Shown here: one piece after another, positions 26,934 through 63,935 of the stretch | Position numbering within the stretch: the first letter of the stretch is position 1 | How the letters are laid out: each line of letters starts with the position of its first letter | Source of the DNA: Bryoerythrophyllum caledonicum | Taxonomy: Eukaryota > Streptophyta > Bryopsida > Pottiales > Pottiaceae | Assembly (NCBI GenBank): GCA_963971425.1 | Contig: OZ020517.1 | Coordinates: 6,698,501 to 6,762,500, forward strand | Length of the DNA: 64,000 nt | Direction of reading: 5' to 3' | Position numbers and translations under genes: made by a program | The notes under the pieces: model-generated | What the model was told of the DNA's origin: nothing | The model's input: the letters and a program-made list of their open reading frames with translations, nothing else | Databases searched by the model: none

Positions 26934-27015
26934 CACTAGTACAAAAGTGGGAAAAAAAAACCGCACTGGATTCAGCATTGCGGTTCTTTTGACCACGTTT
27001 TTGCTAGGTGGAAAT
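26934..27015 (+). repeat. Left terminal inverted repeat of the 37-kb element
   Basis: Starts CACTAGTACAAAAGTGG, then a 9-A tract, CCGCACTGGATTCAGCATTG, and TTTTTGCTAGGTGGAAAT at its inner end. Pairs with 63854-63935. Confidence 0.85.
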
Positions 27016-27099
27016 CGAGTGCCAAAATTTAGGATTTCTTGTGACAATGGGTTGGATATTTCCATTGTCGCATAATTTATTGCGCATTCTTGACTTATA

Positions 27100-28400
27100 A
27101 TTTCATTTTTATTGGAGGTAATAATTGATAAATATGAAACAAATATCTAGCAATTGGTTCTCAATATGTTGTAAAGCCTGTTACATTGTCGTATTGGAGG
27201 CATATTATTGCATGTGAGCATATTCTAACAACATGCATATATTATGAGTGACATATTGTGCATGCATCTAATTAATTACTTCAAGCCATATGGCTATACG
27301 TTGTCATTAAAAATTCATTGCAGTCGGACAACTTTATAAGATTCAAGCTATATCACATGAGATCCATATGAAATAATCATCTCAAATTGCATTTTCATCT
27401 CAAATTGATTGTCATGTAAGAACCATATATATTGCTACTTAATTGGATTCATTGTCAAAGAGAACTTCAGTGCCACTCGTTTTCTAGTGCCACTTGTTTT
27501 CCAGCACCTCTCGTTTTCTAGTATCACTCACAGGGTCATAGTCCAGTGTTTCTTGTTTTTTGGTGCCGCTCAAAATCCAAGGTCGCTCGTTTTCTAGTGC
27601 TACTCAAGATCTAGTGCCATTCAAAATCTAGTGCCACTCAAAATCCAATGCCACTCTTTTTTTAGCGGCACCCAAAATCTAGTACTCCTCGTTTACTAGT
27701 GCCACTAAAAATCCAGTGTACAATAGATTTGCAATATTCAACATTTATTTTTCAACAAATTGATCATCATCCACATTCAACTTTTCAAAATGTTAGGACG
27801 TCCAACATGAGTCATCATACCATCAATCAATCAACCTTACTCAAAGTCATTAACGATAGCATATTAGGTGGCATATGTTATACAACGTGTTACGTTGTTG
27901 TGTTGGAGGCATGTAGTATTATTGCATGTGAGCACCTAATTAACAACATGCGTATGAGTGACTTGCGCATGCATCTAATAATTAATAATTGATATCATAA
28001 CTTCAATGCATGTTGTCATTCAAAATTCACTGCAGTCGGACAGCTAAGATTCAAGTGTCACATGGAATCTATATGAAATCCTCTCAAATTGCATTTTCAT
28101 CCCAAATCATTGACTGTAATGTGGGAATCATTGCTACTTGGATCCATTGTCAAGCAAAACTTCAATGCCACTTGTTTTATATTGTCACACGTATTCTAGT
28201 GCCTCTTGCTTTCTTGTATCGCTAAAATTTCAATGTTGATCGTTTTCCAGTGCTACTCAAAATCCAAGGTTGCTCATATTCTAGTGCCACTCATAATCCA
28301 ATGCCACTCAAAATTCAATGGCAATGGAATTCCATGCTACTCATTTATGAGCGGCATCCAAAATCCAGTATTGCTCGTTCTCTAGTACCCCCCTTCTTGT
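27100..28400. repeat. Subterminal repeat region (duplicated)
   Basis: Two diverged direct copies (about 27170-27720 and 27880-28400) share phrases such as ttattgcatgtgagca, aacaacatgc, catgcatctaat, and a degenerate minisatellite of the form ctagtgccactcaaaatcca repeated many times. Short repeats just inside the ends are typical of CACTA elements, where the element-encoded proteins bind. Confidence 0.6.
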
Positions 28401-28410
28401 TTGTATAGAG

Positions 28411-28717
28411 TTGCGGTTGTTTTGTCCATGCTGTCGGAACAATGCTGAGTTGTTTCTAAACGGGCTGTCCCAGATTTTAGGCCATAACTCCCCCATTTTT
28501 GGGATTGTTTGGAGGGGTAATATACCGTTGGAAGCGTCTTAAAAACTTGCTTTCAACCGTATATTACACGACCAAAAAAATCCCAAAATGAGGGAGTTAT
28601 GGCCAATAAACCGAGACAACTCATTTTAGGAACAATTCAACATTGTTTCGACAGCGTGGTCAAAAGAACCGCAACTCAAATTCAAGTGCGGTTTTTTTTG
28701 CCACTTCTGTACTAGTG
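28411..28717. repeat. Hairpin-forming repeat with a CACTA-type end
   Basis: Two nested inverted repeats fold on each other: gttgcggttgttttgtccat with caaaagaaccgcaac, and ggccataactccc with gggagttatggcc. The right end (28701-28717) reads CACTAGTACAGAAGTGG on the minus strand, a diverged copy of the main element end. It may be a MITE derived from the same family, or a remnant of a nested terminal region. Confidence 0.65.
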
Positions 28718-31041: not shown

Positions 31042-34000
31042 TCAAACTCCGCGGCGTTGCCGACTCCCTCGACGACCCGGCCCCCTGCCCATACCATTGG
31101 CCGAAGGTCTCCTCCCATCAACAAGTGCATTTAGTCGTTGAATCTCTGTTGTAGGTACTGCCAAGCCAATGTCGACGAGGGGGGGTTGGAACTCCACTCC
31201 ATTCAGGTCTCCAGGCAAGTGCATTCCAGCAAGATCGCCACAAATTCCAAGTATTTGCTCGTCTGTTCCACCAACAATGCGTCTGGACCGCGGCTTCTTT
31301 TGTAGGACAATTCTAGTCCATTGAGGGTGTAGCGAGTCCTTGACAAAGAACACCTAGCAAGAATTTTTGAAGATCACCATTGTTATTAGAGAGGGTATTA
31401 TGTCACCAATTTGTTTTAAACTTGAGCTCCATGTCTACGTTAGCTCCCTAAACGGCCTTAGCTCCATGTCTACGTTCTGAGCACCCCGAGCCCGGACCAG
31501 GTTGGTTGTATAGGCATGCAACCATTCTATGAAGTCGGGCAATTCTTCACGCATGTTTTCTGGATAGCAAATTTGCTCCCTCCGTGGCAATCCCCGTGCC
31601 GCGGCGGCTGCCCGAAATTCAAGCGTCCGTGTCGAGCTCAAATTGAAGTCTTTGATATTGCCTGCGGGACAAATGATGAATACATTAGTGATTCTCATGT
31701 CTTGTCCGTGGCATATTGTAGCATTCTAGCTAGGTCATGTACAACAAGGTCCAATAAAAACTATGGCCATTGGCAATAGAAGACAGGTTTTTACGCTACT
31801 TGAAAATTAGCAACCTCGGCTTTTAATGCAAAATGTGAACGTTACCTCCATGGATCCGTTGTGGCTGCTGAGTTTTGAATTATCCATGAGTGGATGCCCC
31901 TCTGCTCTTCAACTGTAAGTTCACGCGGTGTTGACGTCCTTCCAAGACCTCCGAAGCATTTGCAAGTTCTTTGTCGTCATCCCACACGCGCCGCCTCGTG
32001 TGGGGATAGAGCTTGAAGTACTCCGTGCAAAATCCTAGCGATTCTTCATACAAGTATGTGTTGGCTATGGTCGCTTCTGGATTTGCACGTTTTCTAAGAT
32101 AAGCTTTGTATATGCTCATGTGTCTTTCCACCGGGTAACACCATGCGTTCGCAATAGGGCCACATTTCTTGATTTGTCTAACTAGGTGTATTGGTAGATG
32201 AAACATGATGTCAAATATTGATGGTGGAAACCAAATTTCCATTAAGCAAAGTGTCTCTGATGCATATGCATGGAGTAGATTAAGGTCAACAGGGTCAATA
32301 ATTGATTTGCACAACATTGTGAAGAACCTTCCCAAGCGAATGATGGCTTGGCGTGGTCCAGGGTGCATGAGATGTCTCAGGCATACAGGTAAGATGAATT
32401 GCAAAAAATATGGAAGTCATGAGATTTCATGTTACCAATTTTTTTGTTCAAAAGGTGCTTCTTCATTTCTCCGCAATAGCCGGTTGGTACCTTCATATTT
32501 TGCACTTGTTGAAGGAAAATTCTTTGTTCTTCCATTGTCAAGACGTATGGCGCTAGAGGCTTCATGTAATTGTTGTCGCTGGCATATTGGCCTCGACGAT
32601 GAATCCACAAGTGCTCTCTAATACCCTCTTCCTCCATGTCCCTCCTAGATGCCGCAGTGTCTTTTCTTCCAAATAGAAGCTTGAGAAGACTTTTGCAAAT
32701 GTTCCTCTCGATGTGCATAACATCCAAAAGATTCCTGATTGGCAATTGCTGTTCTTCAACAAGTATATACGTCAATGTGTTAGGAACAATATTATACGTG
32801 ATTGCAGCAACATCTAGCACTACAAACAATGTCATGAAACCACATTATATTGAGGCTTGATGTATTGAAACAACATGTTATTGATTTGGTACTTCTCACC
32901 CGCCAGTAAGGTAGTTGAGAAAGGGCCGACACACGCTTCACACCATGGCGCTTTGCCGGATTGTTGGGATCTCTCCATGTCCCACCAGCATCCATGTGAG
33001 CCTCCGTCTCCCGACCTCCTCGAATGGTCTGGTTTCTAGTAAGTGGTTGTGGCTCGCCCTCGTGGTCTGATTCGTTGTTGAAGGCTGCATGGGCATTCCT
33101 AAAATAATGGTTTCGTTGAAGATACCTTCTATGGCAATTGCAATATATAGTTTTCCTTAGCACCGTCGACCATCTTGATATAGTATGAGGCCCACAAATT
33201 GGACAGGCCTTTGATCCTTTGGTCATAAGGCCAGCAACCAACCCGTATCCGGGAAAGTCATGCAATGTCCACATAAGAACTGCACGGAGATTGAAGTTTC
33301 GGATTCCTCGAAAAGCCCTAGCATCCCTGGTTGGAACTCCTCCTCTTTGCCACAATACCTATAGCTCGTCAACCAGTGGTTGGAGGAATACGTCAAAATT
33401 TTTTCCCGTGACACTAACTTTTGTAGGAATTAGCAACGACAACATCACAAAATATCTCTTTGACACAAGCCATGGAGGTAAGTTGTAATTGAATAGCATA
33501 ATCGGCCAGAGAGAGTCAATGCTCCGTTTTGTGACCAAGGGTTCATGCCATCCGCTGCAAGACCCAAGTGTATGTGTCGGGGATCTGACGAACCAAACAT
33601 TTCTTCACCAGCCTCTGGTTCCAATTGCGTGTCGACAAATTTCCATTGAGGAGAGTGTGCAGTGTGTCGCATCTTTCCATCGTTGCTCCTATGGAAGTAG
33701 TGCCATAAGTTCAAAGAATGTTTAGCTCAAGGAAGCTATCTCGATTGAAGTCTTGGGATCAAGGGAAAATGGCGAAGCACTAGAGCTGGGACCCTTGACC
33801 GACCCACCTGAATGCATTTGATACTCCATGCCTACGGCAACAATTTATTATAAGTAAGGTTGCAGAAAGCATTGACAATTCAGAATTCTCGTATACCGGG
33901 AATGTTGATGCCAAATGAATTGCTGGATTTTGCTCTGTGCGGTCGTTTGGGATTTCACCAAGCATCTCTTCGAGGTCTTCATCCTCGCCCTCATCCTCAA

Positions 34001-35106
34001 ACGAGTCATCGTCATCTAAGGAAGAATCATGAAACGAATCGCTGCCGTCACTTGGATCGCCATTTTCTCTAGAATCAAAAAATTGCTCTTCATCGTCAAC
34101 TTCTCGAGTGTCGCCCCTGCCCAGGTGCATTTCATCAACGCCATTGTCAGCACCCATTTCATTGTCGCTTTGATCAGCATCTGCATCGTTGTTATCCATC
34201 TCCATGTCACTTTCGCGCTTTGGGTCATGGTCCGTATCATCGCTATTTCTGGATGCCTCAACCGTTGCTCTAAATGCGGCGCAATGTATGATGTCAGCTT
34301 CGGCTAATGCAGTCCTTACCATCCTTGCAATGCCAACTCCACGATCTAAAGGGATCTCTTGAATGGGCTCCTATAGTCCAAGGAAAGATCGTGCATTTGG
34401 ACCAACATGTGCCTCCCACTCCTCGTCCGACAAGTCAAAATCATCGCCCTGTAAAGCTAGAGTTAGAGGAACCATATGCTTTGAATACAATAATTTTCAT
34501 GTAAAGATGGAAAAGTTGGAATATTGTGAGAAATTACGCAAGGGTGTTGAAATTTGACAATTACCTCTGTCCAACCGCGAAGCGCTCCATGCTTGCCTTG
34601 GTGTGTATAATGCTTGAATATTGTATTTCTTTTATATGGTCTCCTTCTGCCACCACAGAGATTACATGGACATCGGTACTTTTGGAGTTCAGCCCTATCA
34701 TGAATAGTTTTAAGTCACGGGCTTTGATGCGGTTCGGGTGATTGAGTGGGAAGCGAGCTTGCCGACCATGCTCCATGTTGGTCAAATATGGTTTCTTTCT
34801 ATGCAAGAATTGGTAGATGCTCACGCACCTTAAAAAGGCCTTGCACCAAGTGGGAGTGCCTGACACAAGGCACAAAACAGAAGTATTGACGGAATTGAGG
34901 ACACTTTACGCAACATAGTCTAGTGATTGACATACAAACTTTGCAAGGTTTCCTACAATGTGACTAGATAAGCGTGTGTCTATCCATGTACCTTCAATCC
35001 TTTTTGAATTGTCGTTTGCTTCTCCACACATGCATGTTGTTGCATTGCAGCTAATAAAACCTCCTGCGTACATCCAAGAGTCAACAATATGCAATCCATT
35101 CAACAA
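31042..35106 (-). pseudogene. CACTA transposase, TNP2 type (decayed)
   Basis: Read on the minus strand. N-terminal transposase-associated domain: GTWIDTRLSSHIVGNLAKFV near 35000, then YRCPCNLCGG...FKHYTHQGKHG ending at a WTE|GTAATT donor near 34563. An acidic linker follows (34460-33800, with a TAG near 34370). The Transposase_21/TNP2 catalytic region is spread over several frames: LWHYFHRSNDGKMRHTAHS, DPRHIHLGLAADGMNPW (33714-33450), VLMWTLHDFPGYGLVAGLM and KGSKACPICG (about 33280-33190), NLLDVMHIERNICKSLLKLL, KSHDFHIF (32835-32400). Then a DUF4218-like part (LPVCLRHLMHPGPRQAIIRL, 32404-31880) and a C-terminal piece with VKDSLHPQWTRIVLQKKP (31353-31042). The protein would cut the element ends, but stops, frame changes or introns split it, so it is probably inactive. 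Confidence 0.85.
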
Positions 35107-35962
35107 AAGTTAAAACACGCAACAATCATTCTAGCATTGTTAGACATGAAAGATATATGACTCATATTTCTATCGCAAGTTCTATATATTTACGTCCACT
35201 GAAGGAAAAAAAGGGTGGAAAGCAAATAATGTTGCACATGGTTTGAGTCGGCCAAAAGTTCTACTACCTCTTGGAAGGCTCAAAAGCCATACATGATTAC
35301 GCGTTTTGTCGGTTTCCAAACTTGACACTCATTGTGTGAACTACTGCACTCCACTGTGCGTGAAATCCTACTATTCCTCTCCAATTACAAAAGGCTTCGG
35401 CCATGCAAACTCTTCTAGAATCGCCAATGACTTGTACTACATTGGGGTTACTCTTAAGATGAAGTGCTTAGTGTGGATACAAAGGCAGGAGATGTCCTCA
35501 AAAGGTAGGACCACTGCAGTTGGTAGCAAGAGTTTAACTGTGAGTTGCAAGAACAATGAGGATGTTCAGTCATGAAAATTAAGTATTGACTAAAGTCTTA
35601 CAGTGACTGTCTTTTGTGATAATTCATGGTCATGGTCAGGGTTAGCAAACACCATTAATGCCTAACCACGCTCAATAGACACGATGCAATTATACGGCGT
35701 GGTGTCCTAAGCTATTTACTATGCTTTCTTGAAGACTGGTCACCCGCCAATAATGGCCTGAAATTGCCATTAATATGGCGGTCGAAGCTTTAATGATATA
35801 GAGGCGACTAACCCTTTTATTAGGTGGCAGTGCAATCCATGCCATGTTCTTGAGCCGCACTCTACACTTCTAGGGCAATGCTATGCATTTATTGTAACTC
35901 CGTCATGCCCATTAGATTTTAGTTGCCATACATGCCATTGAGGATTTCATACATGCATTCAT
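35107..35962. promoter_or_regulatory. Divergent intergenic region of the CACTA genes
   Basis: Separates the minus-strand TNP2-type and the plus-strand TNP1-type genes, so it should hold both promoters. No clear TATA box could be assigned. A short plus-strand frame at 35306-35575 has no recognisable domain and may be leader sequence. Confidence 0.35.
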
Positions 35963-38900
35963 ATGGAGCAGTTTTCTTCGCCAATGAGACTAAATTTACA
36001 AGCCACAGAAGGCCACTCTCACTACACAGTTCAATCCACTCCTATATTTGGATATTTCAAGATGGATGCGAATGCTGAAGCTGTGAATCTTGCAGATCCG
36101 GATGTAGTGAAAAGCACGCAGTTTAGTCATGAGCGTATCAATCCTCCAATTCACCCTGAGGTATATAATTTTCTACAACTTAGTTTATCTTGTTCAATGG
36201 ACCAAAATTTTCATTTCATGCAGGAAGTGTTCAAATCTTGTACTGACTTCATGTGTGCTTTTTTGTGCGTCCCTCGTAGGGATTCCCAATTGGATTGTCA
36301 CTACATTCTCAATATGAGCAGTCTGAGGTGTGTTGACCGCCATCTCTTCTAAAAATGTTGTGCATGTACGATAGTGTTCTTATGTAATGTTCTCTTCTGT
36401 AGTTTGTCGGAGCGCATCAAGTGCACGGGGGTATGCCTTCCTTGCATTATGGACCACGTCAACAACAATGGCCCAACTATGCGACACGTTTTGAGCATGC
36501 ATATGGCATGCTCGGGGTGGGATATTCAGCACCTTACGCTCGCGGCAACTATGTCCCCATGCATCTTCAACAACAAGGTGCAATGCTGGAACAATATCCT
36601 CCGCACCAGCTCCCATTGCATGGGGCACAGGGGCGTGGAATTCATTCAATGTCCAGCCCAATTGTCAAGCCCAATTGCACCCAAGCTTGTGGGGGGCATG
36701 TTAACCCAAATGCCACTTCTGTCCCAGAAGATGTTTCCGACATACATGATCATATACCAAACATCAATGCGACATTGTCAAGTCTTCCTTTGTCCTCTAC
36801 TCCGGCTGGATCACCGAACAGTCCTGGTGGAAGCCATATGAGCAAGGGGCTCACAGGTGATGGCGATAGTGCTAGCACGGAGGAAGAGAGGGGTCCATGT
36901 AAGGACAAGAACGCTCGATCAATACATGGTAAGCTTACTGCCAGTAAGTTAAACACTCCATATGGTACATCCCGTAGGAAGGCTATGAGGATGGATGGAA
37001 AGTTGTATTTGCGTGAAGTTAAAATGGCATTGTCGGAGAATAGGGTCCCCCAGGTCGCACTTTTACAAGATGAGAATGGACGTATTTTGCAATACTCTTC
37101 GCAGTTCAAAAATGCTCTCAAATTGGCTGCGTTATCATTGGTCCAAAGTGCTTATATAGACGTAAAGGATGTGGAAGTAATGACGGACATAATGGATGAG
37201 GTCAAAAGGCAATTTACTATAAGCACACCTCTACCAGAAAAAATGGTTTCAACATATTTATTGGGTTTATTTAAACGAAACCGGTCAAAATATCATGAGC
37301 ACTGGATTATGCACAAGGGCCGAAAGAAACCTGATGATTGTCCTACCGCGACTTGGTTGAAATTGATAGAATATTGGAACTCCGAGGCAGGTGACAAGGA
37401 ATGCAAGCTGAATCAGAAGAATGCATCTGGCCGTGCAAAACGTGAGGTATGTCAAGTGAGATGATTATGGCTCATGCATGATTGTATTTATTGTCTGTGT
37501 GTATTATTGCCACATTTCATGTTGTTCTGCAAACGGGGATATCACTAGGCTTGACTTGTGCAGGATAAGGGCATGTCCAGTGAGTGCATTTCTGCAAGGA
37601 AGAAGGTGAAGACGAATGTTGTGCCTTTGGATGACATGGATCAACTATTTGCTGACTTCCTAGCAGAGAGTAATCTATATGCCCAACCTACATCCACTAC
37701 TCGGGGCTCAATTGCCAACAAGGCACGAGCCGAGGTTGACATCTCTAGCCAGCTTCAAGCTATGGTTTCTTTGTATGTGAAGAAGGCAATGGACGAGTAC
37801 ACATTGGACAATTTTGGAGCTCAATTACATGACGATCGTACGAAACGCAAGAAGGAAACCCCAATGGCGGATGCGTTACTGAAAAGGGGCCCGTTGCGGA
37901 CTCCACATCAAGTGATGAAGCGATCATGCAAGCCTTTTGTGGGTGATCCAAACCCTTCCACATTTCCCGGATCTTCAACGCCAGTTCATAAAGTAAATTA
38001 GCGACAGGCCCAAGTCGGACTAGATACAATTGTCATTACGCTTTTGTCGTCTGGAAAATCTGCAAGTGGTGAAGACGGATCACTTTCAGGGGATGGTAGG
38101 AAGATTGTTGGTGAATCAAATTACCAAATTCTTGATGGACCGGAAGAAATATCAAGCTTCATGGATGTAGAGCACTTACGCGCCGCTTCCTCTATGAAGC
38201 CAACCCTTGATTTGCGTACGCCTCTTACACCGTGGAATAAAGCCACACAAAATGCATCTCGTCTAAGCAAAAAAACTAGCCTTGGTGCATCAACATTAGT
38301 GGAGCATACGCCTGCAGGTGATGAATACGACTCGCATGGCAATGGTGGCGATGGCAACGACAGCGAGGGTGGTGTGGCTGATAAAGGATCTAGTGAAGAA
38401 GACAACCTTTGCAAGGGGCATGATGATCTTAAAGGTGTGGAAGACAGTGATGGCTCTAGAAACAATAGAAGATGTAGCAAAGACGATGAACCTCCAGTGT
38501 TTCCAAGGCAACCAAAGAAACTAGTCAAGGGCAAGGAGAAAGTGATTCCATCCACAAGGGCACCTGCGAGGTCAAAAGGAAAGAAGAATTTGTCCAAAAA
38601 AGTAGAAAAGAAGCATCGGGCGCCAACCATCGATGCTTCAATTATTACAAGACTAAAAGTTATACCAAGGCCTATGAATTCGGTAAGTGTTTACTGCTTT
38701 GCTTTTAATGATCCAAGCTCCTATCCTTGAGCTACCATATTCTTAGATCTTGTAGTGATGTTTGCATGATTTGATTTGGACTTAAGGTTGTGTATTGCAT
38801 TTCTTCTAGGAACCCATCAAGGCAAGGACCAAAGTATGGCTGCTACATAAGTGTGTGCCAGGTAGCGTGGTTGCTGAGGAATACGCTGGAGTCAACCGAA

Positions 38901-49706: not shown

Positions 49707-49710
49707 TTAA

Positions 49711-50139: not shown

Positions 50140-50290
50140 TTTGGAGGTGATAGAAGGTGCACAATAGGAAGTAGGGTTTGTTGGTGATAGAAGGTGCACA
50201 ATAGAAAGTAGGATTTGCACGTGATAGAAGGTACACAATAGAAAGAAAGGTTTGTAGGTGATAGAAGGTGCACAATAGGAAGTAGGGTTT
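50140..50290. repeat. 37-bp tandem repeat, four copies
   Basis: gtgatagaaggt(g/a)cacaata recurs at 50147, 50184, 50221 and 50258, an exact 37-bp period. Copies differ at a few positions. It immediately precedes the first exon of the coiled-coil gene fragment. Confidence 0.9.
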
Positions 50291-52790: not shown

Positions 52791-52799
52791 TGACGAGGT

Positions 52800-52992: not shown

Positions 52993-53028
52993 GGACCAAG
53001 CGCGGAGGAGCAGCAGCCCTACGAGCTG

Positions 53029-53205
53029 GAGGTTTCGAAGCAGGTGCAGCAGATGGTGCAGTTCATCCACCAGGAATCGGAGGAGAAGGCTAACAAGATT
53101 TCGGTTTCTGCTGAAGAGGAATTCAAACATCGAGAAGCTGCAAATAGTGGCAGCTGAAAAGAAGAAGATCCGCCAAAAGTTCGAGTGCAAGTAGAAGCAA
53201 GTGTT
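53029..53205 (+). pseudogene. V-type ATPase subunit E, N-terminal fragment
   Basis: From 53029 the frame reads EVSKQVQQMVQFIHQESEEK and ANKISVSAEEEF. After a one-base insertion near 53126 the next frame reads NIEKLQIVAAEKKKIRQKFE followed by CK, a stop and KQV. This is the start of plant V-ATPase subunit E (VSKQIQQMV-RFIRQEAEEKA), a peripheral-stalk coiled coil of the proton pump. Beyond KQV the homology is lost. A frameshift, a TAG in place of a sense codon, and an abrupt end mark it as a dead fragment. It is fused behind the AP2-like piece. Confidence 0.85.
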
Positions 53206-53833
53206 GCGCGCGCGTCGTGTCCTCCTATGGAGTGAAGGCAAGGAGCTGCCCACGTGACTGCGGCTATGCAGTTCCTTGCTCGAGATCGTAAGCCCTGCTA
53301 ATGGTTACTTCCTTCATGCTACAGGTTTTTTTTAAAATTTGCGTTGGTCTGGCTAGAGCTGCGAATTCTCATGGGCTGGTCACTCCAGCTTGATGTAGAT
53401 GCTCGGTTGGATATTTTTGAATGCACCACTGTATAGAGCTTGAGAATTCAGTCGGGTTAGGCTCAAAAAACTCTGCATTCGGTCCTTGTATGCAAAAGTT
53501 ATGGATGGTTAACTCAACCTCGTATAATATCTTACTGTGGTGAATATTTTTGATTTGGAACGTAAGTCTGATGCATGCAACATGATAGTTGAGTAGGAAA
53601 GAAAAAGTTAATAAGATTAGGCTCAGAAAAGATGGAAATCTGACGTGGGGCGTGGGAGTTAAGAATTAGTGGCTTCTGGATAAAAATTAGTAGCAAATTA
53701 AAACAGTAGAATTAATAGTAACTAGTTTTAGGGTTATTTAATGAATGGGAGGTGAGAATTACTTACTCAATCGGTCGGATTAATCTAACTCATAATTACG
53801 GTGGAGAACACATAATTTAGGAAGGAATTTTTT

Positions 53834-53868
<35 letters not shown>

Positions 53869-54250
53869 TTATTTTTATTTTTAAATTTTAAAAAAATTAC
53901 TAGAAAATTAGAAAAAAATAAATTGAAGTAAAGAAACAAAAAAATTAATAATAATACAAGTAAGTAATAATAAATACTTAAATTTATTAGATTTATCAGG
54001 GTTAAATAATAGATTTAAACGTAATCCAAGTCAACTTAAATCAGGGGAAAATAATAATAATAGTATTAAATATATATATAGAAAAGAAAAGAAAAAATCC
54101 AAATACAATAAAAAATAGAAGTTACAGATCAATACATGGCATAGTTAAAAACATGCAGCAATAGGACCTTCTGGGTTTAGAATTTGTCCTCTTAGGAAGT
54201 GAATTTTTGGGCTTACACGGTTCAAGTATTGTCGTGATTGATCAGATACT
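53206..54250. other. AT-rich spacer with an (AAT)n microsatellite
   Basis: 53835-53868 is a run of about 11 AAT units. The rest is AT-rich with no gene. The short segment right after the V-ATPase piece (gtagaagcaagtgttgcgcg, 53189) is repeated at 54758. Confidence 0.6.
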
Positions 54251-54800
54251 AGCACGTTATGGGTTTCGAGATCTGGTTTCTAGGAAATATGTGGACGCGG
54301 TTCAAGGACTTCGTTACTTCTTTTGGCTTGTACGCTGAAGGATTTTTCGGCTTGAGAGTTGAAGGAATTTGTCAGTTTTCTAGGCCCGGTAGATGGTTTT
54401 TTTCGGCCTCAAAGCTAAGTGAATTTGTTAGTTGTTTGGGCTTGAGAGTTGAAATAGTTTGTTGGATTTTTCGGCTTGAGAGTTGAAATTGTTTGTTGGA
54501 CTTTTTGGCTGGAGAGCTGAAGGAGATTCTTAGTCCTTCCAACTCGGAAGTTGAAGCACTCAGGATAATCGCAGCAGTTGAGATCTGTTTTCTCTGGAAT
54601 CAGTGGTGTTTGTGTCATGAATCTTGAGGATTATCCTGTTTGAGCTGTGAGATGTCACTCAATCCAATCGCTACCTTGTGTCGTGAATCTCAGATCTGCG
54701 TGTGCTTTTGGTTTGGAATACTGGCGATCACGGAACTTGAGGTGTTTTCCATCTGAAGTAGAAGCAAGTGTTGCGCGCTTTGGTGTCTTACTATGGAGCG
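54251..54800. repeat. Diverged short repeats (ggcttgagagttgaa) and a duplicated segment
   Basis: The phrase gg(c/a)ttgagagttgaa recurs at about 54350, 54441, 54474 and, diverged, 54506, with tttgttgga between. At 54758-54795 the sequence gtagaagcaagtgttgcgcg, followed by a gtcttactatggagc-like string, repeats the region just after the V-ATPase fragment. A 75-codon frame across the repeats is not accepted as a gene. Confidence 0.5.
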
Positions 54801-55365
54801 GGATTAGATTATGTTAAATTACTATGCTACCTTGCAAGTATGTGTTAACTTAAGAATCATCAATTGGATCTTGTCAACGTGCAATTAGGGCTTGCCTACA
54901 TTTCATGTGAGTGGTTATGTGATTTTTTCTACAGTAAATTGCAGGAGCTTGATCTTCAGCATATCACTTGTGTACTATTCGTTTGTTTTCAGTAATAGCA
55001 TCGCCTTAGAAATACTTGTACTTGAATCTGATGTGTTGATTAAAATAATTTAGTTGGAGTTTTCTCATGTTGCAGGATGGATAAGACTTGAGCTGAAGGA
55101 GTGCATCGTGAACCAATTTTTAGAAATTTACCATCGACAATGTGATATTGAACTGGCTCAGTTAATCGCAATGTGATATATTTAAGCTTGTAGACTACTC
55201 ACTTTGATATGCAACAAGGTGGGCAAGTGATTGCAATAGGATTTGATTAGATTTTTTGTAAAAGCCATATGTGGATTAGATTTGAATAGAGGATTTGAGT
55301 AGAAGATTTCACTAGAAGTTCTGTCTAAATGATATGTCTAGAATATTTGGAGAACTTAGAAAGAT
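54801..55365. other. No recognised gene
   Basis: Moderately AT-rich. Upstream exons or the promoter of the zinc-finger dioxygenase-like gene could lie here, but none is identifiable. Confidence 0.35.
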
Positions 55366-56180
55366 AGATTTGGAGAACTTAGAAAGATAGATTTGGAGAC
55401 GAGGTTATTTGGAGACGAGGTTATTTGGAGATGAGGTTATTGGGAGACGAGGTTATTTGGAGGGAGCTTTCAATCTATGAAGATTTGTTGGATGAAATGA
55501 CAACAATTAAATGGTATGACATCTTTTGGCCATGTTTTTTCTTTGTCATGATTTTGTTTGGATTTCTACCGTCCTGTACTTTGCATACTTTGCTTCAGAG
55601 GGAGTATTTGTTTTCTTTGTCGTGATTTTGTTTGAATTATTAACGTCGTGTGCTTTGCACATGGCCTTGATACGAAGAACAATTTTGCTTCACAGGAAGT
55701 TATTGTTTTCTTTGTTGTGATTTTGTTTGAATTATTAACGTCGTGTGCTTTGCACATGGCCTTGATACGAAGAACAATTTTGCTTCACAGGAAGTTATTG
55801 TTTTCTTTGTTGTGATTTTGTTTGAATTATTAACGTCGTGTGCTTTGCATATGGCCTTAATATGAAGAACAATTTTGCTTCAAAGGGAGGGAGGGAGTTG
55901 TTGTTTTCTTTGTCGTGATTTTGTTTGGATTATTAACGTCATGTGCTTTGCACATGGCCTTGATATGAAGAGCAATTTTGCTTTAGAGAGTTGTTGTTTT
56001 CCTTGTAGTGATTTTTCTTGGATTATTAACGTCGTGTGCTTTGCACATGGCCTTGGTATGAAGAGTAATTTTGCTTCAAAGGGAGTTGTTGTTTTCTTTG
56101 TCGTGATTTTGCTTGGATTGTTAACGTCATGTGCTTTGCACTTGGCCTTGATATGAAGAGCAATTTTGCTTCAGGGAAAT
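55366..56180. repeat. Tandem repeats of 16 bp and about 95 bp
   Basis: gaggttatttggagac repeats about four times at 55396-55460. Next, a unit containing ttgttttctttg, gtgattttgtttgaattatt and aacgtcgtgtgctttgcaca recurs with taacgtc(g/a)tg at 55641, 55736, 55831, 55934, 56027 and 56122 (period 93-103, mostly 95), plus a diverged first unit near 55545. The array lies directly upstream of the dioxygenase-like gene and may be its intron or promoter. Confidence 0.85.
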
Positions 56181-56270
56181 GATTTTGTTTTATTACATAG
56201 ATTTCTTTTTATTGATAATTTTATTTCAGTGATTGATTATGTTTGGTGTTTCATTGTACAACAGGTGATT

Positions 56271-57838
56271 ATGGATCAGTCAAATATTCAAATGGACAAT
56301 TCTATGTATGAGTGTCAGATTTGTAAGTGCGGAGCAATGCCAAATAACGAGGCTCAAATCATTTGTCACAACGATGGACGTCGGTATCGCAGACTTGCAG
56401 AACTTGTCTTCAACCATTTGTTTCTGGAGTCATGTGGTGTGTCACATGATACTGTAAGTAATACGTACTCATGTACCATTTGTGATCTTGTACTTGATCG
56501 TAGTGTGGACAAGATTAAACATCATTTCAAATACCAGCATGAGAGGCGTGATGATGCGTCAACGGATGTTCTTACTGTGGAGGTGACAAAGGTTTTTAAA
56601 CCTAAATCTTTCTACTCGACTTTATACGATTTGTCCAAAGACGTCGAGAATTTTCGATTGATTCAGACGCCGATAGCAATGATTGAAGACATGGAAAATT
56701 GTGTGGGTGTCTTGCGATTTAACGTTATACCTCAAGACGAGAGTCCACGACTTTATTGTATGGCGTCCATTTTGGAGAAGTATGGAAAGCCTACAGTACG
56801 AGGATCGAAAGTAGGAGGTAGCCGCATGGTAATGTATGGCCTTTTCGAGCATGGACAGATTGGATGGTAGGTACTTGTTTAAGCTTATTTTTTTATATTA
56901 TTGTGTTGTGTATTTTATATTAGTTGATGTCTAACAAAATGTTTTGCTCAAACATGTTCACCCACTCTCACTTTTGTTTGTATGATTTATCGGAGAGGTT
57001 TGCGGCCGAAATATCCAATTATTTCAAGCAAACGTTTCCAACGACGATGGAGCGATTGGAGAAAGTTCTAATCAATGAAGGATTACCAGCAGGGGAGTGC
57101 AGATTTGCAAGTACGCCGTTCACGTGTTTCTCGGTGATTCGAGATTATAGTTGTAGTCCACACATCGATCCTACCGATTATGGATTTGGGATGATTGTAT
57201 AGCTTTATCCAAGTAAATTTTAAACAAAACTTGTTAGAATATATTGTTGTATTTTTTCTTATTACCTCTATTGACACAAGTTATTGTTTGTATATTTTGT
57301 AGATGGTGGAGTGGAAGTCACTCAATTTCCATCGATTTGGTTACCACAGTATCATCTTCAGTTCAAACCACCGAATGGTACAGCGCTATTGACGAATTGT
57401 AATTCTACAGTCCATTGCACCACAAGAAGTTCACGTGTAAACGCATTGGGCATGGCGTTTGTCCAAAAGAGAAACGTGATAACGAAGTTGAAGACGGCTT
57501 TGGATCATCTCGATAGTGAGATTGCTATCAATTACAAAAAAACTAAAGAGAAATATGAATCAAATCGGATAAATGCCTCTCTTTCCATCATATTTTTTTG
57601 TTTTTGTTTTTGGCGATATGAAATATAATTGATATTTGTCAAGTTGTAATTGTCTAATAATGCCTTTTCAAATATTTTGTTTTAGATTGGTTGTTGATGA
57701 ATTTATTGTGGGTGCAGGTTGATTGTCGTGGCCACCACGTTGCTGCTTCATTCTATTCGCAAGAAAATACATGGCCATGTGATACAACAGAGCCATCAAG
57801 GTCTTCAAAGGTTTTGAAGAAGAGGGCTCGATCTTGAT
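56271..57838 (+). pseudogene. Zinc-finger protein with TET/JBP-like 2OG-Fe(II) dioxygenase domain
   Basis: Exon 56271-56866 encodes a Cys-rich start (YECQICKCGAMPNNEAQIIC) and a zinc-finger-like YSCTICDLVLDRSVDKIKHH FKYQH (C-x2-C-x12-H-x4-H). Splicing TG|GTAGGT to AG|G at 56998 keeps phase. Exon 56998-57212 ends with the iron motif HID (57161-57169, in CSPHIDPTDYGFGMIV), then an in-frame TAG (57200-57202), then LYP. Splicing AA|GTAAAT to AG|AT at 57303 again keeps phase: NGGVEVTQFPSIWLP, FKPPNGTALL, NCNSTVHCTTRSSRVNALGM AFVQKRNV. The distal His is at 57413 and a candidate 2OG-binding Arg seven residues later, as in TET/JBP (HATT...RISLVFYQHKN). A last exon (57719-57838) ends KVLKKRARS. TET/JBP enzymes oxidise 5-methylcytosine or thymine; that activity here is inference. 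The TAG would block it unless read through. Confidence 0.6.
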
Positions 57839-58249
57839 TATGAATAGTTGTGATATGATGTTAGTAATGTTTGGGAAATGATTCTGCTACCTCACGTTTT
57901 ATGTATCTATAAGGTTTTTTAGATAGGGCTTTAATATATTTGTCTTCACATCCTATCATAATAGCATTCCATTGTCTACATTCTTGTGGTGCACATAAAT
58001 TTTCCACTATTGTTTTATGAATTCCTGTGTGACATCAAAGCTATTACACCAACTCTCATTATAACTTTGAAGTTTAGCTCCTTTCGGCCAAAATAGTTCT
58101 ATAATGGATAACCTCCGCAATGTCTTGGGAGGGCATCATTTTTGTTTATTTTTTAATAAAAATTTCTCTTTTCCAAGTTACGTTCATCCAACTCCCAAAA
58201 ACTTTGCATTCAAAAAACATTCAAGTTCTAAAATTTGTCTCGATTCTAG
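57839..58249. other. 3' flank, AT-rich, no gene
   Basis: Probable untranslated tail of the preceding gene then AT-rich spacer. Confidence 0.4.
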
Positions 58250-59000
58250 CTGACTCAACAAGACATAAATATAACAATGGAAGAGGAATCATTTGAAACA
58301 AATTTTCTTTTATTTCTTTCTTAGTCAATATTAAATGATTAAAGGAAAAAGAATATTCAAACCTACGAGTCGTATGCCACGTAGGATAGGTGCCATCTCC
58401 ATTTTATTTTCATTTATTTTTTATAAATAAATCTTGCTTTCAATAAGGGTCATACAAATCACTAGAGGAGGAACACAAGTGATAAAACTGGATATGGAAT
58501 CCGAAGAAGAATCCAAGATAAAAAAATTAGTTTAAAAAGTCAAAATAATAGGGGTAGAGTGAGAGAGGGACATTCAAAAACAAAAATATTCAATCAAGAT
58601 AAAAGAAAAAGAAAGAGATGGAAAGGAAGAATAAAAAAATTAAAATAAAAAAAGGTCATCCCAATCAATGGAAGAGGACTGAAGTCATAAAACTAAATAC
58701 AGAATGTGAGGATTTAGTGGAATTTAAGAAGAACTACTTTTGTTTAAAATAAATTTAAAATAATAGTGGCAAATGCGAGAAAGGAACTTCCAAAAATAAA
58801 AAATTCAATCAAGATAACGGAAGAGGAGAAAGAAGGAGATGGAGAGGGACAATTAAAAAATTAAAATTTACAAAGTATCAAATCTATCAATGGAGGAGGA
58901 GCGCAAGTCATATGACTGAATTAAAAAAACCAAAGAAGAATCCAAAGAAAATTCTTTTGTTTATAAAAATCATAACAAGAGGGGCAAAACAGGGAGAGGG
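58250..59000. repeat. Diverged tandem repeat, about 215-bp period
   Basis: About 2.5 copies of a purine-rich unit. Shared phrases are aggaggaacacaagtgataa (58464), aggactgaagtcataaaact (58672) and aggagcgcaagtcatatgac (58896), each followed by a gaatcca/caagata block and ttcaatcaagataa. Spacing is 208-224 bp. Confidence 0.65.
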
Positions 59001-59600
59001 AGAACTCTCTAGATTTCTCCAAAAAATGCACTTATGTACTTTATAGAGAAATAGTATATTAACCCGAGTCAAACATGTACCTATTGTCTTCTTGCATCTT
59101 TGTAGAAAATTCCAAGAATTGTAAATATATATCACAACCATGATGGGAACATGCCGGAGATTTGCAAAAGGGATTATTTAGGGATTAAGTACAAGATAAT
59201 ATTTGACAACACAAAAATCCCTTGGTCATGTAGGAATTACTTTAACATTAAATTAACGTAGTGGATGTAAATTTTATAAGAATATAAGGAGGACGATAAA
59301 TTTCCATAAAAATGACTATAAGCGTGAAGAACTATGTAGGGCTATAGTAAGGATTTTAAGAGTCGACTGAAGATATTAGTGAAGGCAGTAGGGGTCCGGC
59401 ACAAGCACCTAGACATAGGCCGCCACGTCAACCCCCCTCCACCATGTTCAATGTGTAATGGGTAATTTCAAAATTGTAGAGCGTTGTCTTCTTCTTTATA
59501 GCCTACCTCGATCTATTCTACAATCGATATGGGACTAAGTGCAAAAGATCCCAATTCCTTCCAGCAAGTTTGCACCTGAATGAAGCCAGTAGTTCTTGAA
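59001..59600. other. No recognised gene
   Basis: AT-rich to 59380, then more GC. No convincing frame. Confidence 0.35.
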
Positions 59601-59629
59601 GGTGGAAGAAGCTGTGGTGCCGTGGACAA

Positions 59630-62026
59630 AAATGCGTGGAGGAGCTAGTTCAAATAAAAGAGGGGCGACCTACTGCCCCCTTCTTGCATTCTCGCTCCGT
59701 GCTGACCTGGTTCGGCAATGCATCGCAAGCTCCCGCAACCTTTCTAAACTTTTGTAGGCTTTCGCAGACACTGCTTTCCTTCATTGCCCGAGAAGCCGAG
59801 CTCGCAAACTCGGTCCACAGGATCCTCCTCGCCATCGACTTCGTTTGCACTCAGGTATTAAATTGCCATATGCTCTTTCTTTGATCTGAATCCTAGCTCT
59901 CTCTATTCCTAACCCTTGCTCTCTATATTTCCTAACCCTAGCTTCGAATATTGGCCGCTTTTCTCTTCTTTGAGCTCAGTTCATATAAATACAGAACTAT
60001 CTTGAGGTGATTTCAAGGGGTAAAAAGAGGGTGTATCGTATTGTAATAACCTAACAAATACACGAGGTTGGTTTATTCTCAGCTCACAAGCAGTAGCTCC
60101 GAATTGCTATTAACAGACATAAAATGTGACTGATGTGTTTCTGTGTATATTGTGTGTCATGTGTTCTCCTTGTTTTGACATGTACTTCCAATATTAAAAG
60201 CACTTCTTGTATTCTCTGCAGAGTGGACTGGCTTTTGTAACGGTGGGGAAGGGTTCCAACATCAAATTCTTCTCATGATTCTCTAAAGGAGCAGATACCT
60301 GAGGAACAGGTCACTTCAGTCAACTTCTCGCTCATGGCAGCAACCGATAATTGAGCACCCTGATGATGATGTAAGACTAGGTTTGTGTTTCGTCCCATCT
60401 CTTTTTGGCAGTATGTATTAAGTTCTCTGAATACTCCGTAGTGTGCTTTACTCCGCGGCCTGGCATATGGGTCCAGGCTTAGTGAGTCTTCCTCACTATT
60501 GTTTTTTTTTAAATTTGTCTTCAAGCATCTTTCTTGTCGTCATATATTTATCTAGCAACGTGCTTGCTACTTACATGTTCGAGGAATCTTGGCTGTTAGA
60601 ATATGTTATGTGGATTAGATAATAGAGGAAAAGTTTCAAGAAAAGGACTCTTCATTCTGCCATGAACTAAAACGCGTTTCGAGAGGACTTCGTGTGAAGG
60701 TACATATATGAATTTTCTTGTCGCCACTTGAAGTGGTGCCTCCTCTCGACATAAGTCAAGCTGGTCCTGTTTTTATGGAGGTATCATTTGTAGGTTCCTT
60801 CTGAGCATTGGTTTGAAAAATTGCCGCTCATTGTAAAACACTTGTCGATATACCAGATTAACCTCATAATACCGGATTTTTTTATACTAGGTTGAGCACG
60901 AAGGGAGACCTAGCAACACAATGGTTGTGTTAGTCGGGAATGGAGAATTCTGCAACGAGGTAGAGAGCCTGGAGTTGAATGAGACCACTTTCAATTTGCA
61001 TGTTTTAACTCAACGACTTCAATCGCTGCTTTCTTACGCAAACGTGAAAGGGTGGAAACGAGTCGCCTAACGCATCTCTGAAGCAGCCGACAAAAAAGGT
61101 GTTTCGCAGAAACTTGTGGGAGCTGCTGACATTTACTCTTTGGATTGGAGCAACATCGAAGTTGGAAGCATTGGATATGAACACCAATCCTACAAACCTC
61201 TATCATTCGCAGCTCCAGAGTGGAGCCAAAGTCATCTTATTCCATCTTCAGCTCAAAGAGAGGTTTGTCACTTGCCAATCTCGTCGAGTTCATTTTGGTC
61301 TGAGAAAAAACAGGCTTCTCGCAGTTCTTGTTGGCTAATGATTCATATCAATGCCTCGGTTTCCAACTTCCTATTCCTCGTAATTGAGTAACCAGTTGCA
61401 AAACCTTTCAATTCTGAGCTCGTGTTCTCTGTGGGTGCTTTTTTGGACCAGACAAATGAGGACAAGCATACACATATAATAACTTGCAGCAGCAGCCACG
61501 ATTTAATGACAGCCTCTCTGTTGCCACAACAAGGCATGAGAACAGGCCGTCGCTCTCCATGGGTCGGGCAATGAATTCAAAGAAGTTAATAATGTTGCCC
61601 TCGTCTTGGAAACAACTTCCTAAGTTTACTTTATGGACTGAAGGTGGACTTCAACGTCAATATCCCATGGCAACGTTCACAATTGATCCACGTCAGGTAC
61701 ATTTATCCACATTTTCTGTGTAGCTGTGTTCTCTTTCTTTTATTTTTTATCGTTTATAAATTATTGATATGTCATTTCTTGTAAGGTGGATGGTTGCATC
61801 TCTCGATGTGTTGAGGTTTTGGGAGCGGTTGACACCTTTGGGAGTTCCGTGACCTCGACCTTCATGGCCCAAGAACTCGTTCTTGTGAGATCGGCATTCT
61901 GTTCTTTGAGGTGGCCAACATCATATGTCCGGGGGTGTAACTACACAAACTTGCTCAAGGAAGAGGAGATGAAGGTGCTAGTAGAGAAGTGGACAGTGTG
62001 CAGCTCTTTATTTCTTGATTTCCACT
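59630..62026 (+). pseudogene. Unrecognised multi-exon gene remnant
   Basis: Several exon-like pieces with good borders. 59636-59854 (ends TTCGTTTGCACTCAG|GTATTA) encodes VLTWFGNASQAPATFLNFCR and LLSFIAREAELANSVHRILL. A piece follows an acceptor at 60221. A longer piece (about 60890-61260) includes NLHVLTQRLQSLLSYANVKG W, a TAA, then RISEAADKKGVSQKLVGAAD and IYSLDWSNIEVGSIGYEHQS. 61484-61695 includes KLIMLPSSWKQLPKFTLWTE and ends DPRQ|GTACAT. The last (about 61786-62026) reads VDGCISRCVEVLGAVDTFGS and ends SSLFLDFH. At least one in-frame stop. I cannot name the family; the pieces may not belong to one gene. Likely another captured fragment. Confidence 0.35.
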
Positions 62027-62601
62027 GATTATGGATATGCGCATGCATGTGATAAGCCATGTGAGCTCAAAGGGCTTAAGGGACTAGGTCTGTCAAGTTC
62101 TTTACTTGAAATGATTTGTGTGGGCCATGTGGGGTGACCATGTGCATGTTGAGGACCTCAGTGTAGGTAGAGAAGTTAGATGGTAGAGCTCAGTGTAGGT
62201 TGAGAAGGTAGATGGCGATACGACATTGTGTTCTGCAGAAACAATGAATATTGTATATTGTTTCCAAGAATAAAAAGAATGTGCCACCTGAATGGTACAG
62301 AGTATTTCATTGAAAAAGAGCCTATTTCATGGTTTGAAAATACCAGTTTTTCAAGAGAACTATGGAAGTTCATACACCAGAAAAATCAAATTTTTCACCT
62401 GTGAAAATCTACAACTTTCAAGCCTTGCAGAGTGGTTGTCTACACTTGAAATCTGGCGGATTTCTACACTAGAAATTTGGTGGTTTTCTATGAATAGGCC
62501 CATTTTCGGTTGCCATTTTTCAAGACTTGAAAGTGTCGAACTTTGAACTGTTGGACCCTTGAAATTCAAGCGTTTTCCAGGGTCGATTTTTAGTTGTGGA
62601 G
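62027..62601. other. Spacer with repeated acttgaaa phrases
   Basis: 62110-62230 holds two copies of gtgtaggt(a/t)gagaag(t/g)tagatgg. 62380-62560 has repeated acttgaaa and ttctacact phrases. No gene. Confidence 0.4.
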
Positions 62602-62667
62602 ATGGTAGACCTGAAGTCGCTGGTGACGAAGACGGTGGAGAAGAGGGGCGTGCTCGCTAGGATTCGA
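62602..62667 (+). pseudogene. TONNEAU1 (TON1)-like first exon fragment
   Basis: A 22-codon open stretch from ATG 62602, MVDLKSLVTKTVEKRGVLAR then IR, followed directly by a GTATGT splice donor. It closely matches the start of plant TON1 proteins (MMDLKTLVTRTLEKKGVLAK then IRAELRA). TON1 is a centrosome-protein-related factor needed for cortical microtubule arrays and the preprophase band. No downstream TON1 exon is recognised in the following 1.2 kb, so only the first coding exon was captured. Confidence 0.7.
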
Positions 62668-63853
62668 GTATGTTTCTTTCCTTGACTTTCTGTGCTAGTT
62701 CAGGGAAACTGGTTTTACGAGCGGTGATGCAATGCGGCATAGGTTCGGCAGTGGTGCACGGAGGCTAGATTGTAAGGAGGTTTTTGGTGTGACGTAGCAT
62801 ACGGGATTGTGTGAACACGAGCATACTGTTCCACAGCAAGTCAATTCTTTGTTGGTTTGATGGTGTGCTGGTCTACTGGGGCCCTATCATTGTAGGGAAA
62901 GTTTTCATCGTGTCACTACGGATGGCGGAAGTGTATGTGGTTGTAGAGCAGTTTGGATTGTGTTGCATGTTCAGAATGAGGTGGATATGAGGCCGTGCAT
63001 GTTGAGGTTTGTTGGGGAGAGTATTCTCTTATGCTGGCAGTGTTGGATGGGGCTTGTGTGATTGAGGTGTTGATGATGTGCAGGTAAGTTACTGATGGCA
63101 TTGATGTGCGAGTATCTAGAGTGGTGCGAGTTGGAGCACACATTGAAGATTTATATGCCGGAGCTGAACCATGTATAGTTGTTAAGTAGGGGAATAGGGT
63201 TGCGAGGAACATGCTGCGGTAGTGGCGCGATTGGACTTTGTGCATTTGCTGCCGAGTGAGAGTTTTGGTGCACAGGCCAGTGCGTACAACAGAGCCAAAC
63301 TGGTGGACATTTTGGGACTGGTGGATGAGGCGAAGGCAGAGAGTCAGGAATCTTGACCTCTACTGCTGAGCATCGTGGAATCTTTTGTGAATGAGGTAGG
63401 TAAAGCAATTGGAGGTAGCTACTGTCTGTACGGTGTTGGTCAATCATGGACGGGGAGGGTGGTGTTGAGGGAGGGAGCATGCTTGATTTGCTAGAAGGTG
63501 AACTGAGAAGCCGCCGCCACAGAGTTGCCCTGAATCGCTTGGAATACAAGAATTGGAAGAGGCTCCCCATATCTTTGAGTGGAGACCATAGAGAAGTGAA
63601 GGAAGATAATATTGACATTGACTGCTGAGTAGAAATCTTGTACAAGTTAAATCATTCTAATATGACCTCGCGATATGATGTCCAATGTTGTTTGAGACTA
63701 ACTAGCTTGTTGTTAACGCCAAGGACATCAACTCACAGTAGTCATCTCGGTATATTGTCTAGAACACGCGTTTTTTTGCTTCACTACATAAATTGCCCCA
63801 CTTTCCATTGTCAGTCACTTAAATTCCACAATTTTGGTCATCTTGGACACACA
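62668..63853. other. Intron-like or captured non-coding sequence
   Basis: GC-moderate sequence rich in gtgtg and ggtggtg phrases, following the TON1 donor. It could be captured TON1 intron. Frames here, such as 63446-63628 plus and 63645-63151 minus, are low complexity with no recognisable domain. Confidence 0.35.
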
Positions 63854-63935
63854 ATTTCCACCTAGCAAAAATGTGGTCAAAAGAACTGCAATGCTGAATC
63901 CAGTGCGGTTTTTTTTTTCCACTTTTGTACTAGTG
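63854..63935 (-). repeat. Right terminal inverted repeat of the 37-kb element
   Basis: Read on the minus strand from 63935 it starts CACTAGTACAAAAGTGG, then a 10-A tract and CCGCACTGGATTCAGCATTG. It matches 26934-27015 in inverted orientation with about three differences. Confidence 0.85.

What the first reader, a model, noticed from the sequence alone, without database searches (positions are those of the whole stretch)
26934..63935. A 37-kb composite CACTA transposon splits a kinase-like gene
82-bp inverted ends (about three mismatches) bound 37,002 bp. The two halves of one kinase-like gene abut the two outer ends, in the same orientation and in an order that matches the paralog at 21357-22976. 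The interior contains both canonical CACTA genes plus several host gene fragments. CACTA elements of this size are unusual, and one mobilising so many pieces is a striking case of gene capture.
Basis: partly seen in the sequence, partly recalled or inferred. Interest (0 to 1): 0.9.

Follow-up and report, generated by a model that had tools for sequence, protein, structure and literature searches.

The report
Giant CACTA transposon carrying a dioxygenase
This is one copy of a family of unusually long plant (probably moss) jumping genes that carries its own gene resembling the enzymes that oxidise methyl marks on DNA, a possible way for a transposon to escape silencing.

Summary
Window 26934-63935 (37,002 bp) has 82-bp inverted ends (79/82 identical) flanked by two pieces of one kinase-like sequence. 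In the window's 437-Mb genome, 14 complete elements of 31.6-59.9 kb share these ends; 12 of 14 have perfect 3-bp target duplications. Four copies read in full share 22.4-36.9 kb of this one. So this is a family of giant CACTA elements, not chance pairing or tiling.

Corrections: the split 'gene' belongs to a high-copy repeat. Uninterrupted copies show exactly three extra bases at the insertion, with one duplicate diverged. The cargo is family-wide, not captured by this copy: a broken PPK1 fragment and a four-exon gene for a TET/JBP-like dioxygenase, seen at least in part in 12 of 14 copies, open in 3, broken here, with a homolog in the moss Ceratodon.

TET/JBP assignment is weak: PF12851 matches stay below the curated cut-off, the PDB sequence search found no relative and structure prediction failed. 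Copies carry a CG/CHG C-to-T signature, suggesting host methylation. An anti-silencing role is inference.

The parts
26934..63935 (.). whole giant CACTA element, 37,002 bp
   Evidence: inverted ends, empty-site comparison, family of 14 paired copies
26934..27015 (+). left terminal inverted repeat, 82 bp, starts CACTA
63854..63935 (-). right terminal inverted repeat, 82 bp
26931..26933 (.). target duplication copy, TGG on + strand (CCA in gene sense), same as 10 of 11 empty sites
63936..63938 (.). second target duplication copy, TAC on + strand (GTA in gene sense), differs at 2 of 3 bases
27164..28386 (.). left subterminal repeat region (motif AGTGCCACTC); no counterpart of this motif in the last 1.8 kb
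28408..28717 (-). imperfect hairpin ending in a third CACTA end: probably an old nested miniature CACTA element, left end truncated
   Evidence: two short paired-end copies (351 and 154 bp) elsewhere in the genome
28718..29850 (-). captured genomic fragment of PPK1 with frame breaks (Pfam pieces 29804-29697, 29617-29504, 29130-28996)
   Evidence: PF17941; present in the four other full copies (in C1a only the first ~615 bp)
31880..34714 (-). tnp2 transposase gene remnant (PF02992, PF13960; weak PF13963)
   Evidence: copy C11a has 637- and 335-aa open frames here
36403..38727 (+). second open-frame region conserved among copies, possible TNPA/TNP1-type gene, unproven
   Evidence: ORFs; no Pfam match
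56271..56866 (+). TET/JBP-like gene, exon 1 (Cys/His-rich N-terminal part)
   Evidence: sequence; model from copies C11a and C3
56998..57212 (+). TET/JBP-like gene, exon 2 (H-x-D); one premature stop in this copy
57303..57568 (+). TET/JBP-like gene, exon 3 (distal His); the following splice donor is not GT in this copy
57718..57837 (+). TET/JBP-like gene, exon 4 (basic tail KKRARS) with stop
26472..26933 (-). flank: C-terminal half of the interrupted kinase-like repeat
63936..64000 (-). flank: start of the N-terminal half of the interrupted kinase-like repeat; continues beyond the window

Best explanation
26934-63935 is a decayed copy of a family of giant CACTA (EnSpm) DNA transposons that move as units of about 31-60 kb by cut-and-paste with 3-bp target duplications, and this copy landed in a member of a high-copy kinase-like repeat. 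Shown: shared ends, paired copies, duplications, empty sites, shared interior. The family carries tnp2 transposase, a second long open-frame region, an inert captured PPK1 fragment and a four-exon TET/JBP-like 2-oxoglutarate/Fe(II) dioxygenase gene. Inferred: movement is driven by tnp2 from intact copies acting on the ends; the dioxygenase, when intact, oxidises methylcytosine on the element's own DNA and so counters host silencing. I put the first part at about 0.95 and the dioxygenase's DNA-directed role at about 0.45; the confidence below is for the first part together with the presence of the dioxygenase-like gene as a family component.
For: Ends 79/82. 14 facing pairs of the same ends, 31,551-59,940 bp; 12 of 14 with identical 3-bp flanks (C7 scored after allowing for a changed first base at its left end). 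Interior shared with C12 36,889, C11a 34,105, C3 33,330 and C1a 22,397 of 37,002 bp. Empty sites with exactly 3 bases fewer. tnp2 PF02992 E 1.4e-61 in copy C11a. Dioxygenase-like gene: canonical GT-AG introns in C11a and C3; found at least in part in 12 of 14 copies, all four exons open in 3 (C11a, C3, C11c); Ceratodon protein P0018 45% identical over 88%; H-x-D and the distal His kept in the homologs that cover them; 5 of 7 family members match PF12851 at E <= 0.1, best 6e-4. Pooled nonsynonymous/synonymous ratio 0.49 against 0.58 for tnp2 and 0.80 for the second open-frame region (my pooling). Singleton C>T changes 14.7% at CG, 14.9% at CHG, 4.3% at CHH, against 1.3% for A/T transitions: a methylation signature.
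Against: This copy and C12 lack identical target duplications. Six left ends found no partner. Ungapped comparison of the ends of C871 and C861 gives 37 and 39 mismatches in 82, probably an indel shift, not re-checked with gaps. PF12851 scores (best 19.5 bits) are below the curated 34.9; the spliced C11a protein alone gives only E 0.038; a PDB sequence search found no 2OG enzyme, only two unrelated hits at E 0.46 and 1.2; NCBIfam gave nothing; both AlphaFold models were poor, pLDDT 48.7 and 42.7. The gene was not found in the stretches fetched from C8 and C861 and is broken in this copy and several others. The methylation signature shows resident copies are not protected. Some length in other copies is private insertion (C12: 4.8 and 7.2 kb).
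Confidence: 0.9

Rival explanations
1. Two unrelated CACTA ends happen to lie 37 kb apart, with several independent elements tiling the interval.
For: A third end at 28717, nested repeats and a missing identical target duplication in this copy.
Against: 14 paired copies, 12 with perfect duplications; up to 36,889 of 37,002 bp shared with another copy at a different locus; empty sites.
Confidence: 0.02
2. This copy is a recombinant: its two outer ends come from two giant elements inserted at the same site in two members of the kinase-like repeat, which would explain the differing 3-bp flanks.
For: Flanks CCA and GTA differ at 2 of 3 bases while the ends differ at 3 of 82; the target repeat is high-copy.
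Against: The length arithmetic fits one 3-bp duplication exactly, and it needs two insertions at one position; simple mutation of one duplicate is simpler.
Confidence: 0.15
3. The four-exon gene is an ordinary host gene of unrelated function caught and carried along like the PPK1 fragment, with no role in transposition or DNA modification.
For: A homolog sits in Ceratodon with unknown context; the TET/JBP match is weak; most copies examined are broken or only partly seen.
Against: It keeps open exons and canonical introns in some copies while the PPK1 fragment is broken in the window copy, and its pooled substitution ratio is no looser than that of tnp2. The ratio has no significance test.
Confidence: 0.35

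Closest known systems
Plant CACTA/EnSpm elements (for example soybean TgmR* 13 kb and Tgmt/Tgm9 20.5 kb, passages of PMC4219821)
   Same: CACTA ends, 3-bp target duplication, tnp2 transposase, subterminal repeats at the left end, captured gene fragments known in the group (passages of PMC8978399)
   Different: 31.6-59.9 kb instead of 13-20.5 kb; 82-bp ends; a TET/JBP-like gene; no matching subterminal motif found at the right end
Enlarged En/Spm families of the red alga Chondrus crispus, 16-20 kb with 4-5 ORFs (passage of PMC6431247)
   Same: Oversized CACTA with extra genes
   Different: Half the size or less; no TET/JBP gene is mentioned in the passage seen
TET+ EnSpm transposons of rust fungi and other TET/JBP-bearing fungal DNA transposons (passages and section 4.2 of PMC12730594)
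   Same: EnSpm element with CAC..GTG ends and 3-bp duplications that encodes a TET/JBP-type dioxygenase; same anti-silencing hypothesis, also untested there
   Different: Different kingdom; a divergent dioxygenase found here only with moss and metagenome homologs; far larger element; plant tnp2 type
Pack-CACTA / gene-capturing CACTA elements
   Same: Carries a host gene fragment (PPK1)
   Different: Keeps transposase genes and is of autonomous type; the cargo is fixed in the family (recalled definition of Pack-TYPE as non-autonomous, also stated in the abstract start listed for PMC8903248)

Membership tests
CACTA/EnSpm DNA transposon | Terminal inverted repeats starting 5'-CACTA | tested here: met
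   79 of 82 identical in this copy
CACTA/EnSpm DNA transposon | 3-bp target-site duplication | tested here: met
   12 of 14 paired copies perfect; in this copy the length is right but the two triplets differ at 2 of 3 bases; C12 also differs
CACTA/EnSpm DNA transposon | tnp2-type transposase | tested here: met
   PF02992 E 2e-23 in this copy, 1.4e-61 in C11a; DUF4218 E 4.3e-29
CACTA/EnSpm DNA transposon | Second gene of TNPA/TNP1 type | tested here: inconclusive
   Long conserved open frames but no Pfam match
CACTA/EnSpm DNA transposon | Subterminal repeats at both ends | tested here: inconclusive
   10 one-mismatch matches to AGTGCCACTC in the first 1.8 kb, 0 in the last 1.8 kb; another right-end motif was not excluded
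TET/JBP dioxygenase | Significant match to the family profile (PF12851) | tested here: not met
   5 of 7 members match at E <= 0.1, best 6e-4, 19.5 bits, below the curated 34.9; so described as TET/JBP-like and not filed as a member
TET/JBP dioxygenase | H-x-D and distal His of the Fe(II) site | tested here: met
   H254, D256 and H308 of the C11a model, kept in the homologs covering them; P0022 ends before the distal His
TET/JBP dioxygenase | Double-stranded beta-helix fold | tested here: inconclusive
   Two AlphaFold models too poor to search with
TET/JBP dioxygenase | Oxidation of 5-methylpyrimidines in DNA | not testable with these tools
   needs biochemistry
PPK1 polyphosphate kinase (captured fragment) | PP_kinase_C_1 domain | tested here: met
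   PF17941 in three ordered pieces, up to 40.8 bits against a cut-off of 25.7; frame breaks show it is not functional

The most novel reading that the evidence does not exclude
A land-plant DNA transposon family encodes its own methylcytosine oxidase: giant moss CACTA elements carry a divergent TET/JBP-type enzyme that oxidises methylated element DNA to resist silencing, parallel to the TET-bearing EnSpm elements of rust fungi and in a lineage (plants) where TET homologues have been called unidentified (PMC11233409, passage).
Probability: 0.4. Interest if true: 0.9.

Novelty: new variant of a known kind. Interest (0 to 1): 0.74.

Why it matters
The elements are well above the CACTA sizes given in the papers I saw (13-20.5 kb), and they recur with clean target duplications, so size did not stop transposition. 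[quoted passage not shown] A TET/JBP-like gene carried by a moss DNA transposon would make both questions directly testable: whether plants have enzymatic methylcytosine oxidation, and whether transposons bring it. It also provides a plant counterpart to the fungal TET-bearing transposons (PMC12730594), suggesting that an anti-methylation gene may be a recurrent transposon strategy.

Tried and rejected
Considered and rejected: a 1.8-kb element 26934-28717 as the true insertion (its ends match at 86% against 96% for 26934/63935, its outer triplets differ, and the kinase N-half is not beyond 28717). The 28717 end is better read as the end of an old nested miniature element. Led nowhere: Rfam scan of the window at gathering thresholds, 0 matches; plasmid-collection searches with the left end plus kinase flank and with tnp2, no match; NCBIfam, none; PDB sequence search, no relevant hit; two AlphaFold models, unusable, so no fold search was made. 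The Pfam scan at E <= 0.01 of all six frames of 40000-55000 gave nothing; 55001-63902 gave Tet_JBP and a weak LisH_2 on the + strand and nothing on the - strand. Of 34700-40003 only one frame per strand was read whole, plus single ORFs, so a domain in other frames there could be missed. A genome-wide count of the dioxygenase gene, and a search for an intact host PPK1, did not complete: the genome search was reported busy. So whether a TET-like gene exists outside these elements is open. No species name was found; a recalled guess (Calohypnum, notebook entry) was not tested and is not claimed, and Ptychostomum knowltonii (408.8 Mb, abstract of PMC11704416) does not match in size.
Full report
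Observation. The claimed ends are there: 26934-27015 and the reverse complement of 63854-63935 agree at 79 of 82 positions without a gap, all three differences being G/A. The best of 200,000 random inverted 82-bp pairs from the window reached 44 of 82. A fuzzy search of the window (up to 7 substitutions in 26 bp) found only three such ends: 26934, 63935 and an inner one at 28717. The kinase-like flanks are real. Homologs of about 520 residues align to 26951..26484 on the minus strand and, in the genome beyond the window, to L009 649..35, in the correct order and orientation.

Genome evidence. The window is G000:C4:6698501-6762500 of a 437-Mb assembly in 894 contigs. The first 200 bp of the element returned 42 matches (40 of 252 first-look candidates scored, so a lower bound): 20 left ends, 14 right ends and 8 short matches to the terminal region only. 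The 14 right ends all pair with a left end in facing orientation, giving elements of 31,551 to 59,940 bp; six left ends stay unpaired. Twelve of the 14 have identical 3-bp flanks on both sides (CCT, CAA, ACC, CAC, CTC, TGG, GTA, CTT, TGT, AGA, CAT, TTG); for C7 the left end was read with its first base changed. This copy (TGG/TAC) and the C12 copy (TGA/TTT) do not match. At 1/64 per copy, 12 of 14 is far beyond chance. End-to-end differences are 0-6 of 82 in 12 copies; ungapped counts of 37 and 39 in C871 and C861 probably reflect an indel and were not re-checked.

Shared interior. Aligned blocks cover 36,889 (C12), 34,105 (C11a), 33,330 (C3) and 22,397 (C1a) of this copy's 37,002 bp, mostly at 93-98% identity with some lower blocks in C1a. 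Some copies hold private insertions, for example 4.8 and 7.2 kb in C12, the former with a 1,495-aa open frame. The family ancestor was therefore itself giant, at least about 33 kb by this comparison.

Insertion site. The interrupted sequence is not a single-copy gene: the 462-bp C-half has 40 scored matches, itself and 39 others at 94-96%, with 429 first-look candidates. This gave empty sites. All 11 fetched copies run straight through the insertion point; 10 of 11 have CCA there and one CCC. Ours has GTA on one side of the element and CCA on the other. The insertion therefore added exactly 3 bp beyond the element, as a CACTA insertion should, and one duplicate has since changed at two of three bases, or the two outer ends come from two insertions.

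Anatomy. From the left: end; subterminal repeats built on AGTGCCACTC (10 one-mismatch matches in the first 1.8 kb, none in the last 1.8 kb); an imperfect hairpin 28408-28717 ending in the third CACTA end, probably an old nested miniature element (two short paired-end copies of 351 and 154 bp occur elsewhere); a PPK1 fragment in three ordered Pfam pieces between 29804 and 28996, with frame breaks, found in the four other full copies, in C1a only in part; tnp2 on the minus strand with DUF4218, decayed here but with 637- and 335-aa open frames in C11a; a second conserved open-frame region 36403-38727 with no Pfam match; 15 kb without any Pfam match in six frames, containing dispersed and tandem repeats; and the dioxygenase-like gene at 56271-57837. 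PPK1 of bacterial type is known from a limited set of eukaryotes including the moss Physcomitrella patens, where it has 21 and 22 introns (passages of PMC3680246).

The dioxygenase-like gene. A weak Tet_JBP match (PF12851, E 0.046) led to a four-exon model with canonical GT-AG introns in copies C11a and C3. Exons were found at least in part in 12 of 14 copies; in C8 and C861 the 2.4-kb stretch that I fetched held none; four other stretches (C1c, C871, C1b, C7) showed only the 5' exons and C4b only the 3' end. All four exons are complete and free of stops in three copies, C11a, C3 and C11c. This copy has a premature stop in exon 2 and lacks GT after exon 3. The protein has a Cys/His-rich N-terminal part, H-x-D and a distal His 54 residues later, and a basic tail. 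A profile search found six proteins; the longest is KC19_7G040900 of the moss Ceratodon purpureus, 45% identical over 88%. With the PPK1 fragment this points to a moss host, but no species is established.

How strong is TET/JBP? Five of seven family members match PF12851 at E <= 0.1, best 6e-4, all below the curated cut-off of 34.9 bits. No relevant PDB sequence match, no NCBIfam match, and two poor AlphaFold models. I therefore call it TET/JBP-like and do not file it as a member. For comparison, a passage of PMC12730594 reports that the divergent TET/JBP-like proteins of some fungal transposons were linked to CMD1 only at an HHpred e-value of 1.4.

Selection and methylation. Counting distinct changes against C11a over five copies and pooling by hand, the nonsynonymous to synonymous ratio per site is 0.49 for the dioxygenase exons (59/936 over 33/258), 0.58 for tnp2 (119/2826 over 57/783) and 0.80 for the second region (102/1742 over 37/505). 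No tree and no test were used, tnp2 has large gaps in some rows, and decaying copies are included. Singleton C-to-T changes occur at 14.7% of CG and 14.9% of CHG sites against 4.3% of CHH, and A/T transitions at 1.3%, the pattern expected of DNA methylated in the plant manner. So the host has probably methylated resident copies; this supplies a reason for an anti-methylation gene but also shows that the gene does not protect copies for long.

Literature. Passages seen: EnSpm families with TET/JBP genes, CAC..GTG ends and 3-bp duplications in rust fungi, function untested (PMC12730594, and section 4.2); [quoted passage not shown] 16-20 kb En/Spm of Chondrus called significantly enlarged (PMC6431247); 13- and 20.5-kb soybean CACTA elements (PMC4219821); gene capture in Chenopodium CACTA (PMC8978399). 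Searches for a plant CACTA with TET or for giant CACTA returned no such report; the library lacks most subscription papers, and longer CACTA elements may well be in print. No size record is claimed.

Verdict.

Noticed in passing
window 26472-26933 and loci L048-L058: The kinase-like sequence is a high-copy repeat (40 scored matches including itself, 429 first-look candidates) about 2.45 kb or longer, ending near GGACGGCCGAACAACCCTG and with an open kinase-like frame in L049; it may be a mobile element that carries a kinase-like gene.
   Followed up: partly
window 6037-7134, 11073-11702, 16623-17144, 18629-20821, 23489-24900: Recurrent minus-strand gene-like modules with a shared N-terminal motif (KAFxGW...YIxWCH), some with RING-like domains, interspersed with the intact-looking kinase paralog at 21357-22916: possibly one repeated multi-gene unit.
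   Followed up: no
window 3198-4709: hAT-type transposase remnant (Dimer_Tnp_hAT, DUF659).
   Followed up: no
window 17754-18390, 40052-40789, 45804-46180, 47817-48161, 48944-49622: A dispersed repeat of about 0.3-0.7 kb at 71-82% identity, in both orientations, inside and outside the element.
   Followed up: no
window 63101-63169 (+): Weak LisH-like match (PF16045, 23.8 bits, cut-off 27) near the right end of the element.
   Followed up: no
G000:C11:4866283-4866633 and G000:C10:7711351-7711504: Short sequences with both CACTA ends of this family, 351 and 154 bp: candidate miniature derivatives.
   Followed up: no
copy C12 (L023, element position 12187-17029): A private 4.8-kb insertion holding a 1,495-aa open frame, probably a nested retrotransposon; not identified by any search.
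   Followed up: no
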